This document shows positions 1,845-8,180 of a stretch of 32,215 nucleotides of DNA, piece after piece. Made by a program: the position numbers and the translations under genes. Location of the stretch: the IMG/VR virus record IMGVR_UViG_3300005538_000223, positions 1 through 32,215 of that record. One strand, given 5' to 3'. The notes under the pieces are model-generated. The model saw only the letters and a program-made list of their open reading frames with translations, was not told where the DNA came from and searched no databases. This stretch comes from a virus. How positions within the stretch are numbered: the first letter of the stretch is position 1; every line of letters starts with the position of its first letter.

Positions 1845-2240
1845 ATGAAGAAGATTTGCACCGTGCTTGCGGTTTTCATCGCCCTGTCCGCTCCTGCGTT
1901 CTCTGCCGACAATCTGTATGACTCAGGAAACGCGTTTGCTCGTCTCTGCTCGTCCCTGGATAGGGCTAACGACTCCAATCTGACGATTCTTGAGAAGGCT
2001 CGCAATATGAATTGTATGGCGTATGTTGACGGCGTGTTAGACGGCGTCGCTTACGAGTACAAAATAGCCCAAGACAATCTGGCTACTCCCTTCTGCATTC
2101 CCGATGGAGTTACGAGTTTACAGGTAGGACTAATCACGCTTAAGTACATTAAGAACAATCCAGAACTGGCTAACCGTACTGCGGTCTTTCTCGTAGTTCA
2201 TGCTATAAGGGAAGCGTTTCCTTGTTCCGAGAAGCACTAG
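1845..2240 (+). CDS. Secreted Rap1a/Tai family immunity-like protein
   Basis: A 131-residue protein with an N-terminal signal peptide (MKKICTVLAVFIALSAPAFSA, cleavage near residues 20-21) and a mature part with the Rap1a/Tai pattern: a glycine- and cysteine-containing first helix (C35), C57 in MNCMAYVDGVLDG, FCIPDGVT with C84, a helix with KYIKNNPEL, and the terminal AIREAFPC with C127. Four cysteines would form two periplasmic disulfides. Known members bind and block type VI secretion amidase effectors of the Tae4/Ssp kind; many relatives are orphans of unknown role. Here it is a lone plus-strand gene against the leftward phage genes, with no effector beside it, so I read it as cargo. Start chosen because the signal peptide begins there. 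The stop TAG shares the palindrome CTAG with the stop of the converging gene. Confidence 0.8.
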   Translation: MKKICTVLAVFIALSAPAFSADNLYDSGNAFARLCSSLDRANDSNLTILEKARNMNCMAYVDGVLDGVAYEYKIAQDNLATPFCIPDGVTSLQVGLITLKYIKNNPELANRTAVFLVVHAIREAFPCSEKH

Positions 2241-2479
2241 CTGGCTTTTGCCTTCAGGCTTTCGAAGAACGCTGTCGCCGTCTCGCGCTTGTCGTGAAGT
2301 CCCTGAACATGGGCATGGCGACCATCTAGCCACGCCTTCAAGTCTGCTTCTGTGTTGTCGCCGCTCACTTCAATCGTGTGAACGGAGTCTGTGCTCGCGT
2401 CGGAGCAGCAGCGCAGCGTCACGGCAATCTGCGAGTCCGCAAGATGCTGAACGTTTACGACTTCGGTTGTGTGTGGCAT
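2237..2479 (-). CDS. Hypothetical 80-residue protein downstream of tail-tip gene
   Basis: Small soluble protein with no recognised family. It begins MPHTTEVVNVQHLADSQIAV and has mixed strand/helix composition, with a Cys-Cys pair at 24-25 and a charged C-terminal helix. A very good ribosome site (AAGGAGA about 6 bases before ATG) and its position 15 bases after the tail-tip stop make it a real gene, probably expressed with the tail operon. No signal peptide or membrane segment. It is the last leftward tail-region gene before the plus-strand cargo and ends tail to tail with that gene inside CTAG (2237-2240). Confidence 0.75.
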   Translation of the reverse strand: MPHTTEVVNVQHLADSQIAVTLRCCSDASTDSVHTIEVSGDNTEADLKAWLDGRHAHVQGLHDKRETATAFFESLKAKAS

Positions 2480-2494
2480 AAAATCTCCTTTTTT

Positions 2495-5400
2495 TTACGA
2501 AGTGCCCTGTGGCATGTTGTGGACGATGTGTCCGTTAGCGAGTGTGTACGAATGCTCTGTGTCTAAAGCGCTGCCATCGTCATCGGCTTCAGCGTCGATG
2601 CAAAGGTTCGCGATGAATCCTGTGTAATCGGCGCTCGCAGCAAAGATGCCGAGTTCGCTCGCAGGCGTCCAGCGCTCGCTCTTGAACAAGTGCCCGAGCG
2701 TGACCAGTTCGCTGTTACCCATGTCGAGCATAGGGCGGTCGGTCTGCTGTGAGCATCGAACCAGAACGATTGAGCGCCACGTTCCGCGAGCGGTCAGCGC
2801 CAAGTCGCCTTCTCGAATGTCCCAGAAGCTCACATCGCCGCGCTGCGTTTTGATTTTCGTGTTCGGACTGAAGCACGAACCGCCACCGCCGACACCGCCA
2901 CCGCCAGAGGCGGTAGTGATAGAACCGAACGAGACTCGTCCGTCGCTTTGAAACAGGACCAACTGATTGGTGGTTGCAAGGTAAGTGACCGCGCCGCCTG
3001 CAAACGTTGGGTCATCGGCGTAAATGTATCTCAAGCCATAGACAGCAGGCGTCACCGAACCAGAGCTATAGTTAACAGCGTTGCTTCCCCAGTTGATTGT
3101 GCTCGCGGCAATCAAAATGGTCTTCGTAGAGCCGCTTTGTGACAACGGATTGCCCGAGCTGAACGTCTGAATCGCATAGAGCGGCTTGGCGTTTAGCTGC
3201 GATGCGACCTGATTGTTCGCATCGAGCGCGTTATATGCACGGCCTGCACCAGTCACTTGATTGACGGTTGTGCGATTGTAGGTAGCGCCATCGGGCAGTT
3301 GGTCAACCGTCTTAGCGACGAAGCCAGTCGGGGCTATCTGCATGCCGGATGCTACTTCGTAGCCGAAGTATGTTGCGCCTGTCGGCGATAGTGAAGAGTC
3401 TACGGCTTTCCATTGCCAAGCGCCGTCCACGAATACACTCAACTGTCCACCGCTGACCTGCACTTTAACGTGATGCCAACCAGACAGAGCAGTACCGTTG
3501 ACTGCACCAACTGCCGAACCGATGAATCCGGTTGAAGCACCGTTAACGATTTTGAATATCTGCCCTGAGTTGTTTCCACTGCGCCCGTCAAAGCGGACCA
3601 CGTAGGCAGTTGGCCCTGAGCCGCCCGCCGATGCGTACAGCATCAGGTCAACAATTCCACCAGTCGAAAATACATCGAACTCGATTGTTCCCGGAAGCGC
3701 TACCGTCAACCCTGTGGTCCACGCGCCTATGGTCGTGGGAAAAGTGAGGGATGATGACACGGTAGTCGCTGCGCTTACCGGACATCCACCCTGACCCGCC
3801 GAAGCACCAACCAGCAGGCCGCTCGACGCGTCAATCGTGCCGGGATTGAGACCGGGAACAACGAACGTGACAGCAGGCAGCGTGCTGATGTCCTGCGCCA
3901 TGTTGCCGAACGTGTTCACAGCTTGGAACTTGAAGTAGAGCGTCTGCCCAGCCCACGTCGGGTCGTAGGTGTATTTGAAGACCGAAGAGTCGAGACGCAT
4001 GAACAGTGAGTTCGCAGCATGAGATGCGACAGTCGAACCCATCTGACCGCGCCGAATATAACCGTTCATCGTGTACTGGTTCTGACCGCTGATTGCACAA
4101 GCTGAATATGCGACAATCTCGCCATCGACGAAGCAAAGCGTCGTGCCGTTATCCGCGTCGCTAGTAGAGCCTGCTTCCATCTGTCCGCTGTTCTCGACCA
4201 TGTTTACTACGAGCGAGTTCGTCGTGTCAGGGTCAGAGCCTGAAGCGAAGGTAGACGCCAGCACGCCCATGCGTGCCTGCTGGTCGATGCTTCCAACCTG
4301 AAGGTACGCGCTTCCGTCTCGCGATACCCAGACGTTCGTGCTGCCGTAGTTGTCGGAAGTCCCGCAAGCACCCATCCAGATTTGGTTGCCTGCGTAGCCC
4401 GTCAGGCGGTTCGTCGCTTCGAACATCACGACTTCAGAGCTGCCGGGGTTTGCGTAGGCGTTCACTATCGTGTCGCCAGCCGAAATGCTTTTGTTGTAGA
4501 TGACAGGAAGACCTACAGAGAAGAGCGAGTCTTCGCAAGTAATCTCCAGACCTGCAATCGGGTCGTCAACAATCGTCTTGATGCGAACAGGCAGATTAGT
4601 TATGCCAAGATTCACGTTGTTCAAGCCCGCTGCCCACGCGCTCGTGGTGCTGATTTCAATTATGTCCATCGGTTCGAGATACGAATAGCAGAACGGCAGA
4701 CTGAAGACGTACTGATTGCGAATGTTGACGGACCGCTTCACTCGCATGTTCGCAGCGAAGACAGCCGCAGGTAATGTCGTGATGAAGTTCCAGCTCTGCG
4801 GGTCTTCGAGCCTCAAACCCCATCGGTTGATGCAGGCTTGGTCGAACTCCTGCGTCAGCTCATCGGAGTATTGATATGCTCTGTTGTTCCACGTGACCTG
4901 CACTTCGTTCCAACCGTCCTGCCACGCTTCGCGAGAAATCTTTACAGGGTCTACGCCTTCGGCGTGTACGAAGCACGAATCGTCGAGCGCAACAACAGCC
5001 GACGACGGAGCTACCCACGTGCAACCATTGCCAGCAGCGCTCTGCGTTCCGTAGGGAACTAGCTTGAGCAGACCTTCGGAAACGAAAGCAGCGCACATTC
5101 CAGCTTCGAGCCACTTGCTGATGTGACTGGCCGCGCTATCCTGCGCGTCGAGAACAGGCGAGATGAAAAAGCTGTTGGCCGCGAACCAGTTGTAAGCCGT
5201 GCTGTTTGTCGTTCGCGTTCCCGGCGTGCCAGCAGCGCTACCCCAAGTTCCTGTTGAGCCGTTGTCGAGTGCAGATACGGGAAAGGGAACCGCGCCAGCA
5301 CCCAAGCCCCACACAGTATTTGTGAGCACCTGCGTAATGCACCGAATCGGGTTGCAATCGACGATGCCGCCGCCGACCGCATCTGGCGTTATCACTTCGA

Positions 5401-6769
5401 CGGTGATGTCGGGTATTTCACCAGCAGAGCCGAGTGACATCGGTCCATAGGCGAGATACGCGGTGTTGCTGTAGCCGAGCGCTGCTCCTGGGAACGCCGA
5501 TTCTCTTGGCGACTGACCACCGTCCTGCGTCCCGATCGCCGAAGTTCCACCTGACAGAATGAAAGGCCAGATGGCTTGACTGATGCCACCGCCGAACAAC
5601 TCAAACTTGAGAAGGTTCGGTGTGTTGTTGGTTGCGGCGCTCAGGTTCTCGTACTTGTACGAAATTAAAACTTCCTTGCCAATGTCAGCCGTCGCGAAGG
5701 TGTACTGCGCTCCACCCGAGCTACCGCTTCCCGGCGTAGCGTATTTGTATTGACCTGTTGACGGCGTTCCGCTCGTAATCTTCGTGAGCGGCTGCATGTC
5801 GTTCGGTCCCGGCGTTCCGCTGGTGCTGTACCAGATGACGCCCATGTCTACAGTCGGATTGTAGGTCCCGCCGACCGTGATGCCGAGACCGGACGGGATA
5901 ACGTCGGTCTCTTGATTCATCAGTTCCTGAGTGCTGAGCTGGTAGTTGATGACAGCCGATTTGCCCACGTCGGCAGATGAGAAGTGATAAGTGTTGCCTG
6001 TCTCCGCTGCTGTAGCCGCATGAGTCTGCGCGACGCCATTAGCATTGGCTAAAGTCACACTCGATGCAGAAGACGCTACACAGACGAATGTTCCGTTGTT
6101 CAGCGGGTTGGAAAAGCCTGCGATGACGAAAGCAAAACCGATGTAGGCATTTGACGCGCCGCTCGAATATGGTGAAGCGCCGCCCGTGAACGTGCCAGTG
6201 TAAACCGTGTTGCCGCCTGATGCGTTCGCTACAGCCGTCAGCGTGAACGTCCCTATAGAGGCGGGATTGATAGAGTATTCGCCTGTCGTCAGAGCAGTTC
6301 CGTATGGTACGAGTTTCATCGGAGCAGCATCCGTGCCGCTTAGCACCGTAGCAGCAGGTGCGCCAAAGTCGTTATAGGTCGCACTGTACGTCGTCGCCAG
6401 CGAGACACCGTTATCCGCGAGCAACTGAACAGGGTACGACGGCGCATATACAGCCGCGATGGTGACAGAGTCATTCTTGGAAGTCGTGCTGAGCTGCGTC
6501 TGCCCATCCCAAACGCTTCCGATTGCGGCTACTGGCCCGTTGCACAGTGCGGCGATGACGTTGCTCGCGTAGATATAGCCAGCAGTTGATTTTCCGCCGC
6601 CTTTGCCGCCCATGTCAGACTTCCACGACACGAGACCGTCCAACCAGAGCAGACTCTGATGCAGCCTGCCTTGTCCCATAGCAGCAGGAACAGGTTTGCC
6701 CTGCGATGAGCTGGTGACGCGAATGTTATTGACTCGCGACGTTGCTGGTGTCTGTCCTGCGATTGCCAT
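2495..6769 (-). CDS. Giant tail-tip / host-specificity protein with C-terminal Hint domain
   Basis: A 1424-residue protein in the position of the lambda J / GTA gp15 tail-tip protein, which contacts the host at the distal end of the tail. The N-terminus has the typical phage-tail start (NNIRVTSSSQGKPVPAAMGQG, then GLVSWKSDMGGKGGGK). Residues ~880-960 include the GTA-type GYIRRGQMGSTVASHAANS segment, and ~1010-1150 form a LamG/concanavalin-like sandwich (WHHVKVQVSGGQLSVFVDG). A glycine linker (GGGGVGGGGS) leads to a Hint module from Cys1299: CFSPNTKIKT start, VTLGHLF with His1360, and a HIVHN end with His1417-Asn1418, leaving only MPQGTS after it. These residues are those used for autocatalytic splicing or cleavage in inteins and bacterial intein-like domains. 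Ribosome site AAGGACGG; the start overlaps the NlpC stop by one base (TAATG). Confidence 0.9.
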   Translation of the reverse strand: MAIAGQTPATSRVNNIRVTSSSQGKPVPAAMGQGRLHQSLLWLDGLVSWKSDMGGKGGGKSTAGYIYASNVIAALCNGPVAAIGSVWDGQTQLSTTSKNDSVTIAAVYAPSYPVQLLADNGVSLATTYSATYNDFGAPAATVLSGTDAAPMKLVPYGTALTTGEYSINPASIGTFTLTAVANASGGNTVYTGTFTGGASPYSSGASNAYIGFAFVIAGFSNPLNNGTFVCVASSASSVTLANANGVAQTHAATAAETGNTYHFSSADVGKSAVINYQLSTQELMNQETDVIPSGLGITVGGTYNPTVDMGVIWYSTSGTPGPNDMQPLTKITSGTPSTGQYKYATPGSGSSGGAQYTFATADIGKEVLISYKYENLSAATNNTPNLLKFELFGGGISQAIWPFILSGGTSAIGTQDGGQSPRESAFPGAALGYSNTAYLAYGPMSLGSAGEIPDITVEVITPDAVGGGIVDCNPIRCITQVLTNTVWGLGAGAVPFPVSALDNGSTGTWGSAAGTPGTRTTNSTAYNWFAANSFFISPVLDAQDSAASHISKWLEAGMCAAFVSEGLLKLVPYGTQSAAGNGCTWVAPSSAVVALDDSCFVHAEGVDPVKISREAWQDGWNEVQVTWNNRAYQYSDELTQEFDQACINRWGLRLEDPQSWNFITTLPAAVFAANMRVKRSVNIRNQYVFSLPFCYSYLEPMDIIEISTTSAWAAGLNNVNLGITNLPVRIKTIVDDPIAGLEITCEDSLFSVGLPVIYNKSISAGDTIVNAYANPGSSEVVMFEATNRLTGYAGNQIWMGACGTSDNYGSTNVWVSRDGSAYLQVGSIDQQARMGVLASTFASGSDPDTTNSLVVNMVENSGQMEAGSTSDADNGTTLCFVDGEIVAYSACAISGQNQYTMNGYIRRGQMGSTVASHAANSLFMRLDSSVFKYTYDPTWAGQTLYFKFQAVNTFGNMAQDISTLPAVTFVVPGLNPGTIDASSGLLVGASAGQGGCPVSAATTVSSSLTFPTTIGAWTTGLTVALPGTIEFDVFSTGGIVDLMLYASAGGSGPTAYVVRFDGRSGNNSGQIFKIVNGASTGFIGSAVGAVNGTALSGWHHVKVQVSGGQLSVFVDGAWQWKAVDSSLSPTGATYFGYEVASGMQIAPTGFVAKTVDQLPDGATYNRTTVNQVTGAGRAYNALDANNQVASQLNAKPLYAIQTFSSGNPLSQSGSTKTILIAASTINWGSNAVNYSSGSVTPAVYGLRYIYADDPTFAGGAVTYLATTNQLVLFQSDGRVSFGSITTASGGGGVGGGGSCFSPNTKIKTQRGDVSFWDIREGDLALTARGTWRSIVLVRCSQQTDRPMLDMGNSELVTLGHLFKSERWTPASELGIFAASADYTGFIANLCIDAEADDDGSALDTEHSYTLANGHIVHNMPQGTS

Positions 6770-7230
6770 TACCGTCCGTCCTTCAACGTGAAATATCGAC
6801 GTGCTGCACCGATGAGCAACGGGTGCTTGAAAGCGTCAGCGGCTTTTACTCCACCGTGTGCGACCGCATGCAGAACCAGCGGCCACTTCACGACAATCGC
6901 TGAGTGCGCGAAGGCGTGACCGTTCGCCATCTTGAACATGACGACATCACCTGCGCCGACTTCGTGCTCTCGAATCTCGCGCATGAAGAGCGCCAGACCG
7001 TCGATGTATTCCGTGTCAGCCTGATGCTGCCCTATTTGCAGTGAGTAGTCTTTCGGTATTGACGCGTCGGCTTCCTGCGCCGTGAGATGCCCTGTGTTTT
7101 GAAACACACCAGCGACAAACCCGATGCAGTCAGCTCCGCAGTGCTTCATCCGACTCCATCCGCGATACGGAGTGTTCAACCACTCCCACGCTTCCTTCAC
7201 GATTTCGTCGCGCTGCTTTACGTAGAGCAT
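6769..7230 (-). CDS. NlpC/P60-type tail cysteine peptidase
   Basis: A 153-residue cell-wall peptidase of the NlpC/P60 superfamily, matching the GTA gp14 / lambda gpK position next to the tail tip. The nucleophile is Cys35 in CGADCIGFVAGVF, followed by the catalytic His109 in HAFAHSAIVV and a third polar residue, His121 (LVLHAVAHGG). It would cut peptide cross-links of peptidoglycan during DNA injection. The N-terminal part (IVKEAWEWLNTPYRGW) is the usual entry helix and substrate loop. Full domain length with no extra module. It lies 8 bases after the DUF2163 hub gene and is coupled to the tail-tip gene through TAATG. Confidence 0.92.
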   Translation of the reverse strand: MLYVKQRDEIVKEAWEWLNTPYRGWSRMKHCGADCIGFVAGVFQNTGHLTAQEADASIPKDYSLQIGQHQADTEYIDGLALFMREIREHEVGAGDVVMFKMANGHAFAHSAIVVKWPLVLHAVAHGGVKAADAFKHPLLIGAARRYFTLKDGR

Positions 7231-7238
7231 GGTTCTCC

Positions 7239-8180
7239 TTACAACGCTGAAGTCGGCGGCGGGATGAACGGGAAGCCACCGAACTGGAGCGAGTTATCGA
7301 CCGAAGCACCTGCTGCCGTCTTTCTGGTTTTGCAGGAGGGCAGTGTTTTGTCACAACCAGCGATGACGCTGAACGTGTCGCCTGCGCTCACAGGCAGCAA
7401 GAACGGGTTCATCAGTTCGAGATTTCCTGATGCGTCATGTAGCTTGACCGACTGACTCAATCCCGAGTTGGCGCCAGCGGTGCATTTGACGACGCCCTGT
7501 GTTGCCCATCCAGCGGCCTGCGTGAATGCGGTGACAGGTGTCAGCAGTATCTGCGTGCTTCCGCTTTTTGCCGTGAACGCCTGTGTGTACGTCGCCGCGC
7601 TGAGAGTGCAGTTCGAGTCGCAGAACCCCCACATGCAATTGGCCTGAAACAGCCGTGCTGGAACTTTCGTGTTCAAAAGATAAAGCGGGTCGGCACATTC
7701 GAACTCGACCCTCAGTCGGTTGATATCTGTGATTTTGGTGATAGTGCCTGTGAACTTCGTCTCAATACCGCCAGCAGGAATCGTGCCGTAGGAACCGAGC
7801 GCCATGTACGCCGTGTAAACCGTCACCGTTGCCGCGTCGAACAGACCGTTGAATGCTGCGTTGAGCATGCCGATGGTCATGTTCGGATATACCGTCGTTG
7901 GCTGCGGCACACAGCTCAGAGCCATAGAGTTTGACTTGCAACTGAAGCCAGCTTCAGACGTAATGCTGCCGCGACTCCATCGACCATACTTCCCAGACTC
8001 GAACGTTGTAGTTGCGCCAGACCAGCCGACGGTGCCTGAAGGAATGGTGATTTTGAATTGACCTTCCGTCGCGTAGATCGTCGTTCCGGTCGGCAGCATA
8101 ATCGCAAACAGGTCTGCCTTTAAGCAGTTCTTGTTGGCTTGCAGCCAACCGACCAGCGTCGAACTCATCAGTCTTTTCAT
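7239..8180 (-). CDS. DUF2163 / BR0599-family tail hub protein
   Basis: A 313-residue baseplate hub protein of the DUF2163 plus phage_BR0599 C-terminal type, equivalent to GTA gp13 and functionally to lambda gpL. Family marks are the N-terminal MSSTLVGWLQANKNCLKADLFAI and the C-terminal CDKTLPSCKTR with LQFGGFPFIP. Clustered cysteines (C182, C187, C191 in CMWGFCDSNC; C276 and C283) match the C-terminal iron-sulfur site described for gpL-like and GTA hub proteins; cluster binding here is inferred. The start at 8180 is kept, although the ATG at 8168 is also possible because neither has a strong Shine-Dalgarno. The dispersed motif at 8195-8215 lies just upstream. Confidence 0.92.
   Translation of the reverse strand: MKRLMSSTLVGWLQANKNCLKADLFAIMLPTGTTIYATEGQFKITIPSGTVGWSGATTTFESGKYGRWSRGSITSEAGFSCKSNSMALSCVPQPTTVYPNMTIGMLNAAFNGLFDAATVTVYTAYMALGSYGTIPAGGIETKFTGTITKITDINRLRVEFECADPLYLLNTKVPARLFQANCMWGFCDSNCTLSAATYTQAFTAKSGSTQILLTPVTAFTQAAGWATQGVVKCTAGANSGLSQSVKLHDASGNLELMNPFLLPVSAGDTFSVIAGCDKTLPSCKTRKTAAGASVDNSLQFGGFPFIPPPTSAL

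What the first reader, a model, noticed from the sequence alone, without database searches (positions are those of the whole stretch)
2495..2875. Hint (intein-like) domain ending the tail-tip protein
The last 126 residues start at Cys1299 and have the Hint layout with VTLGHLF and terminal HIVHN, with only six residues (MPQGTS) after Asn1418. With no real C-extein and Met rather than Cys/Ser/Thr next, self-cleavage or ligation of the tail tip to another molecule is more likely than splicing. It follows a glycine linker and a LamG-like domain, so cleavage would expose or release the receptor-contact region.
Basis: partly seen in the sequence, partly recalled or inferred. Interest (0 to 1): 0.7.

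Follow-up and report, generated by a model that had tools for sequence, protein, structure and literature searches.

The report
Self-cutting domain capping phage tail tip
The protein at the tip of this virus's tail ends in a small domain of the kind that cuts or splices itself out of proteins, and at least a dozen other uncultured bacterial viruses carry the same domain at the very end of their host-contact proteins, which suggests that the tip is chemically trimmed, or linked to something, after it is made.

Summary
Observation confirmed. The 1424-aa tail-tip protein (2495-6769, minus strand) ends in a Hint domain (Cys1299-Asn1418) followed only by MPQGTS. Its AlphaFold2 model (pLDDT 85.8) matches BIL and intein structures best. 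I found 16 further distinct Hint domains in uncultivated viruses and no close relative in 50,697 phage records. All 17 keep Cys1, TxxH and His-Asn. None has Cys/Ser/Thr after the Asn. Fourteen sit at the extreme C-terminus with 3-6 residues after Asn, 13 of them behind a Gly-rich linker. The same tail-tip scaffold carries different Hint subtypes, and related Hints cap unrelated tail proteins, so it behaves as a mobile terminal cassette. Best reading: a type A BIL-like self-processing domain that removes itself, leaving a Gly-rich stub or joining it to another amine. Activity is predicted, not shown. Corrections: type A BILs can splice without a +1 nucleophile, so splicing is not excluded; both scissile bonds lie beyond the lectin-like domain, so processing cannot release it; and an extra ~90-residue beta domain separates that domain from the linker. 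Known chemistry in an apparently undescribed setting.

The parts
2495..6769 (-). Tail-tip (megatron / lambda J-like) protein, 1424 aa, the Hint-bearing protein
   Evidence: PF13550 52.7 bits and Rcc01698_C 45.4 bits, both over cut-off; phrog_1101 E 8e-50; GTA_megatron E 1.8e-24, below that model's cut-off
2516..2875 (-). Hint domain, Cys1299-Asn1418, type A BIL-like
   Evidence: Hint_2/Vint matches, AF2 pLDDT 85.8, Foldseek to BIL/inteins, 16 homologous domains
2873..2875 (-). Cys1299, predicted nucleophile of the N-S acyl shift (block A)
   Evidence: invariant in 17 of 17 distinct domains
2690..2701 (-). T1357-L-G-H1360, block B TxxH motif
   Evidence: Thr and His invariant in 17 of 17
2516..2521 (-). 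His1417-Asn1418, block G, predicted Asn cyclisation site
   Evidence: invariant in 17 of 17
2498..2515 (-). C-terminal tail MPQGTS; in 14 terminal members the tail is 3-6 aa, never starting with C/S/T
2876..2902 (-). Gly-rich linker (GGGVGGGGS) ending at the predicted N-scissile bond
   Evidence: sequence; 13 of 14 terminal members have at least 40% Gly in the 20 residues before Cys1 against 11% in the host proteins
2903..3163 (-). Beta-rich segment between the lectin-like domain and the linker (residues ~1203-1289), shared with L007, L005, L012
   Evidence: alignment A4; 46% identity to L005 over residues 1202-1421, a span that includes the Hint
3203..3734 (-). Concanavalin A/LamG-like domain, probable receptor or glycan contact (residues ~1012-1189)
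   Evidence: Laminin_G_2 E 0.041, CBM66/galectin fold hits from a low-confidence model
6769..7230 (-). NlpC/P60 tail-tip peptidase, neighbour in the tail operon
   Evidence: PF00877 28.4 bits, over cut-off
7239..8180 (-). Baseplate hub protein (phiJL001 Gp84-N / BR0599); a hub-type tail protein carries a Hint in relative L029
   Evidence: PF09931, PF09356; L029

Best explanation
The C-terminus is a mobile, type A BIL-like Hint cassette that processes the tail tip after translation. Cys1299 attacks the Ser1298-Cys1299 bond (N-S acyl shift), making a thioester at the end of the Gly linker. Asn1418 cyclises and cuts off MPQGTS. The thioester is then resolved by water (Hint simply removed, tip ends in GGGGS), by the freed MPQGTS amine (splicing without a nucleophile), or by an outside amine (ligation). 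In each case the mature virion keeps the lectin-like receptor-contact domain and loses the Hint cap. Shown: fold prediction, intact conserved catalytic residues, terminal placement, modular spread over host-contact tail proteins. Inferred: that the domain is active, which resolution is used, and that the point is maturation or unmasking of the tip, by analogy with self-cleaving intramolecular chaperones of tail fibres.
For: Hint fold model matches BIL2, gp41-1, CthBIL, NpuDnaE and others. Cys1, TxxH and HN are invariant in 17 distinct domains while most other positions vary (members compared directly are 30-63% identical to the window's). No C/S/T at +1 in 17 of 17 (about 0.02 by chance from the 20.9% C+S+T of the host proteins). 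Tail of 3-6 residues in all 14 terminal members, 13 behind a Gly-rich linker. Purifying selection against L007: pN 0.22, pS 0.72 in the Hint. Module swapping: window and L030 are 56% identical over 759 aa of tip scaffold but carry different Hint subtypes, and L030's Hint is 50% identical to that on an unrelated hub-type protein, L029. Host proteins carry PA14, CBM_4_9, CBM_5_12 and LamG domains. Type A BIL chemistry as described in PMC4031507.
Against: No processing has been observed. The Pfam match of the window's own domain is below cut-off. With 3-6 residues after Asn, C-terminal cleavage alone would achieve little, so the strict retention of HN is not fully explained by simple removal. The block F His is Arg in one member (L015).
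Confidence: 0.62

Rival explanations
1. Ligase cassette: the thioester at the Gly linker is attacked by an amine or hydroxyl of another molecule (a neighbouring tail subunit or the host surface), so the tail tip becomes covalently joined to it, as Hedgehog joins cholesterol and T. thermophila BIL2 joins a ubiquitin-like domain to lysines.
For: Top structural neighbour is BIL2, for which isopeptide ligation to other proteins is reported (PMC8616854). A flexible Gly linker ending at Cys1 would suit transfer. The cassette sits on carbohydrate-binding or receptor-contact proteins. The residue before Cys1 is often Gly, Ser or Thr.
Against: Hedgehog and type B BILs do without a C-terminal HN, yet HN is invariant here. 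No acceptor or acceptor-binding domain was identified; the downstream gene is not conserved across the family. Hydrolysis is the default fate of such thioesters.
Confidence: 0.15
2. True splicing passenger: a mini-intein-derived element that happens to sit near the C-terminus and excises itself, joining the short tail to the linker, with no benefit to the phage.
For: Type A BILs can splice without a +1 nucleophile. A related Hint sits inside a MuF-like head protein with HN-Cys and a real C-extein (L016/L017).
Against: 14 of 14 terminal members have only 3-6 unconserved residues after Asn, an unlikely repeated landing site for an invader; the Gly linker comes with the module; no +1 nucleophile in any member; no room for a homing endonuclease (domains of 110-120 aa).
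Confidence: 0.12
3. Catalytically dead Hint kept as a structural or adhesive knob on a flexible Gly linker.
For: Terminal position on host-contact proteins; no activity shown; several other displayed domains on these proteins are binding modules.
Against: Nucleophile, TxxH and HN are invariant in 17 of 17 although much of the surface varies; a binding knob would not need them.
Confidence: 0.08

Closest known systems
Type A bacterial intein-like (BIL) domains (e.g. CthBIL, PDB 2lwy)
   Same: Hint fold, Cys1, TxxH, C-terminal His-Asn, no nucleophile at +1, set in variable surface-contact proteins
   Different: Here on phage tail and other virion proteins, mostly at the extreme C-terminus with 3-6 residues after Asn, behind a Gly-rich linker; one tandem pair (L020)
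T. thermophila BUBL BIL2 (6y75, 6tmm)
   Same: Best structural match; a Hint that processes the flank on its N-side
   Different: Flanked by ubiquitin-like domains on both sides, eukaryotic; 16-18% identity
Hedgehog C-terminal autoprocessing (Hog/Hint) domain
   Same: Terminal Hint releasing an N-terminal domain through a thioester
   Different: Sterol-recognition region absent here; HN kept here; weaker fold match (1at0, E 3.7e-3)
Self-cleaving intramolecular chaperone domains of phage tail fibres
   Same: C-terminal self-removing domain on a receptor-contact phage protein, exposing potential binding sites in T5 (PMC12403621)
   Different: Different fold and chemistry (Ser-Lys dyad); no such Pfam match in the window protein
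Mini-inteins in phage head, portal and terminase genes
   Same: Hint fold; internal relatives in L016/L017, and partial matches in Gordonia phage head genes
   Different: L016/L017 have a real C-extein and Cys at +1

Membership tests
Type A BIL domain | Hint (horseshoe) fold | tested here: met
   AF2 pLDDT 85.8; Foldseek hits to BIL and intein structures
Type A BIL domain | N-terminal Cys nucleophile and block B TxxH | tested here: met
   Cys1299, T1357xxH1360, invariant in 17 of 17
Type A BIL domain | C-terminal His-Asn | tested here: met
   H1417-N1418, 17 of 17
Type A BIL domain | No Cys/Ser/Thr at +1 | tested here: met
   Met here; M,I,V,Y,G,A,Q,L,V,K,L,L,F,N,L,F,F across the family
Type A BIL domain | Sequence clusters with characterised type A BILs | not tested
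   no set of reference BIL sequences was at hand; only 2lwy by structure (21% identity)
Type A BIL domain | Self-cleavage or splicing activity | not testable with these tools
   needs expression
Class 1 intein | Cys/Ser/Thr at +1 and a functional C-extein | tested here: not met
   Met at +1; six-residue tail
Type B BIL | Block G unlike inteins (no HN) | tested here: not met
   HN present
Hedgehog Hog domain | Sterol-recognition region after the Hint | tested here: not met
   only 6 residues follow the Hint
Pfam Hint_2 (PF13403) | Score over the curated cut-off of 28.4 bits | tested here: not met
   window 20.2-24.6 bits; the records of relatives L011, L012, L016 and L019 pass
Vint (PF14623) | Score over the curated cut-off of 27 bits; VWA-Vwaint-Vint architecture | tested here: not met
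   16.2 bits; no VWA domain
Megatron / J-like tail-tip proteins | PF13550 and Rcc01698_C over cut-off; gene order tape measure, DUF2460, BR0599, NlpC/P60, tip | tested here: met
Intramolecular chaperone of tail fibres | Peptidase_S74-type domain | tested here: not met
   no Pfam match

The most novel reading that the evidence does not exclude
A chemical harpoon: the tail tip uses the Hint thioester at its Gly linker to bond covalently to the host surface or to a neighbouring tail subunit, a Hedgehog/BIL2-like ligation used in phage adsorption or tail assembly.
Probability: 0.13. Interest if true: 0.88.

Novelty: new variant of a known kind. Interest (0 to 1): 0.56.

Why it matters
Self-processing Hint domains in phages are usually met as inteins in terminases, polymerases and head proteins. 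Here the same chemistry caps receptor-contact tail proteins of many unrelated uncultivated phages as a swappable terminal module. If active, it means that tail tips are trimmed or ligated by a mechanism different from the known self-cleaving chaperones, and it supplies small compact Hint domains (110-120 aa) behind natural Gly linkers that could be tested as protein-ligation tools. It also makes a testable case for what BIL domains, whose biological role is largely unknown, are for.

Tried and rejected
Single-sequence scans of viral contigs and genome contigs with the window's Hint gave nothing; degenerate DNA motifs and alignments were needed. Both genome-contig scans found no relatives, so hosts remain unknown. 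Four of the matches to the second motif pattern (L004, L006, L008, L009) were chance frames. phmmer and hmmsearch against PDB sequences gave no convincing hit, so the fold evidence rests on structure comparison. PF07591 (PT-HINT) does not match the window. A split or trans-splicing partner or hidden C-extein downstream was looked for: the next gene is a separate 80-aa ORF with its own Shine-Dalgarno-like sequence, and only two relatives share it. A search of bacterial genomes around a centre genome was not possible for a virus record. The second AF2 job (residues 975-1424) was of low confidence (pLDDT 55.8) and is used only as weak support for a lectin fold. A toxin-release role as in polymorphic toxins is rejected: nothing but six residues follows the Hint.

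Full report
Observation. By single-sequence profile search the Hint assignment is real but sub-threshold (Hint_2 24.1 bits against a cut-off of 28.4, and Vint over nearly the whole domain). The protein is a tail-tip protein: PF13550 and Rcc01698_C over cut-off, phrog_1101 E 8e-50 and a partial GTA megatron match. It follows genes for a tape measure, a DUF2460 protein, a BR0599/Gp84-N hub protein and an NlpC/P60 peptidase. The record also holds terminase, portal, head maturation protease, major head protein and an integrase, so it is a temperate tailed phage or prophage.

Relatives. The window's domain alone retrieves nothing from 2.9 million viral contigs or 85,000 prokaryote genomes, and only distant partial head-gene hits from 50,697 phage records. 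Degenerate motifs and growing alignments retrieved 16 further distinct Hint domains from uncultivated viruses. Cys1, TxxH and HN are present in all 17; Phe1300, Gly1384, Asn1388 and Leu1410 are invariant in the 14 aligned. Two subtypes exist, roughly CF[ST]PNT...TEHSYTLANGxxVHN and CF[ST]Gx[VT]...H[YF]xLxNGxxAHN. Fourteen are at the extreme C-terminus with tails of 3-6 aa; 13 of these have at least 40% Gly in the preceding 20 residues, against 11% in the host proteins. The residue after Asn is never C, S or T (0 of 17; about 0.02 by composition). The exceptions are informative: L029 has a 26-aa Gly-rich tail on a hub-type tail protein; L061 has an internal Hint with Phe at +1; L020 ends in two tandem Hints, one of each subtype. 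Searches of the cultured-phage collection with four other members of the family found no match or only weak intein-like partial matches.

Modularity. Window and L030 tip proteins are 56% identical over 759 aa but carry different Hint subtypes; L030's Hint is 50% identical to that of the unrelated L029 protein; the window's Hint is 54% identical to the second Hint of L020, with no other similarity found between those two proteins. Host proteins include megatron-like tips (window, L007, L010, L005, L030), lambda J-like tips (L019/L049, L028), PA14/CBM/LamG fibres (L012, L002, L015), a hub-type tail protein (L029) and a virion structural protein (L032). Between window and L007 the tip scaffold is about 86% identical, the lectin-like region about 50%, the Hint 65%; Hint pN 0.22 against pS 0.72 indicates purifying selection, with the caveat that synonymous sites are close to saturation.

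Structure. The AlphaFold2 model from 7 sequences has pLDDT 85.8 and pTM 0.82. The 17 PDB hits with E <= 0.001 are all BIL domains, inteins or Vint, headed by T. thermophila BIL2, with CthBIL (2lwy) and NpuDnaE among them; Hedgehog 1at0 follows at 3.7e-3. A model of residues 975-1424 is poor (pLDDT 55.8) but retrieves CBM66 and galectins besides BIL2, agreeing with the weak Laminin_G match.

Mechanism. Type A BILs keep Cys1 and HN, lack the +1 nucleophile, mostly cleave, and can splice when the freed C-flank amine attacks the N-thioester (PMC4031507). All of these sequence features are met here. The top structural neighbour, BIL2, is reported to join its N-flank to lysines of other proteins (PMC8616854). 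The most likely outcome is therefore removal of the Hint, leaving the tip ending in the Gly linker, with or without MPQGTS; ligation to an outside amine is possible but unproved. Because both scissile bonds lie after the lectin-like domain, processing cannot release the receptor-contact region; at most it unmasks it, as cleavage of the intramolecular chaperone does for T5 fibres (PMC12403621). The strict retention of HN ahead of a dispensable-looking 3-6 residue tail is the least explained point; it argues that the C-terminal reaction, not only N-cleavage, is under selection.

Novelty. The domain is a BIL-like Hint, a known kind. I found no paper in the held library describing a terminal Hint cassette on phage tail proteins, which is not proof of absence. 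I rate it a new variant of a known kind.

Noticed in passing
L020 7653-8372 (+), record of 463033 bases: Two tandem Hint domains, one of each subtype, at the end of a 989-aa protein, separated by KAAV.
   Followed up: partly
L061 4687-8379 (+): Internal Hint of the same family in a 1231-aa protein with about 680 residues after it and Phe at +1; an internal BIL-like domain.
   Followed up: partly
L016 5131-6567 and L017 5128-6528 (+): Hint inside a MuF-like head morphogenesis protein with HN-Cys and a real C-extein: probably a mini-intein.
   Followed up: partly
window 2237-2479 (-): 80-aa ORF directly after the tip gene, with homologues at the same place in L018 (42%) and L012 (37%); unknown function.
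   Followed up: partly
L049/L050 (record of L019, 39622 bases): 127-base identical ends; the Hint of its J-like tip protein (KDG-CFSPNTRLKT) runs across the contig ends, so the record is probably a complete circular assembly.
   Followed up: yes
window ~2903-3163 (-): Beta-rich segment before the linker shared by window, L007, L005 and L012; other members have a different beta domain there (FTYTSTTSSITWxW...).
   Followed up: no
NZ_CP050305.1 (L055): Two adjacent Hint domain-containing proteins on a Rhizobium plasmid, distant partial matches to this family.
   Followed up: no
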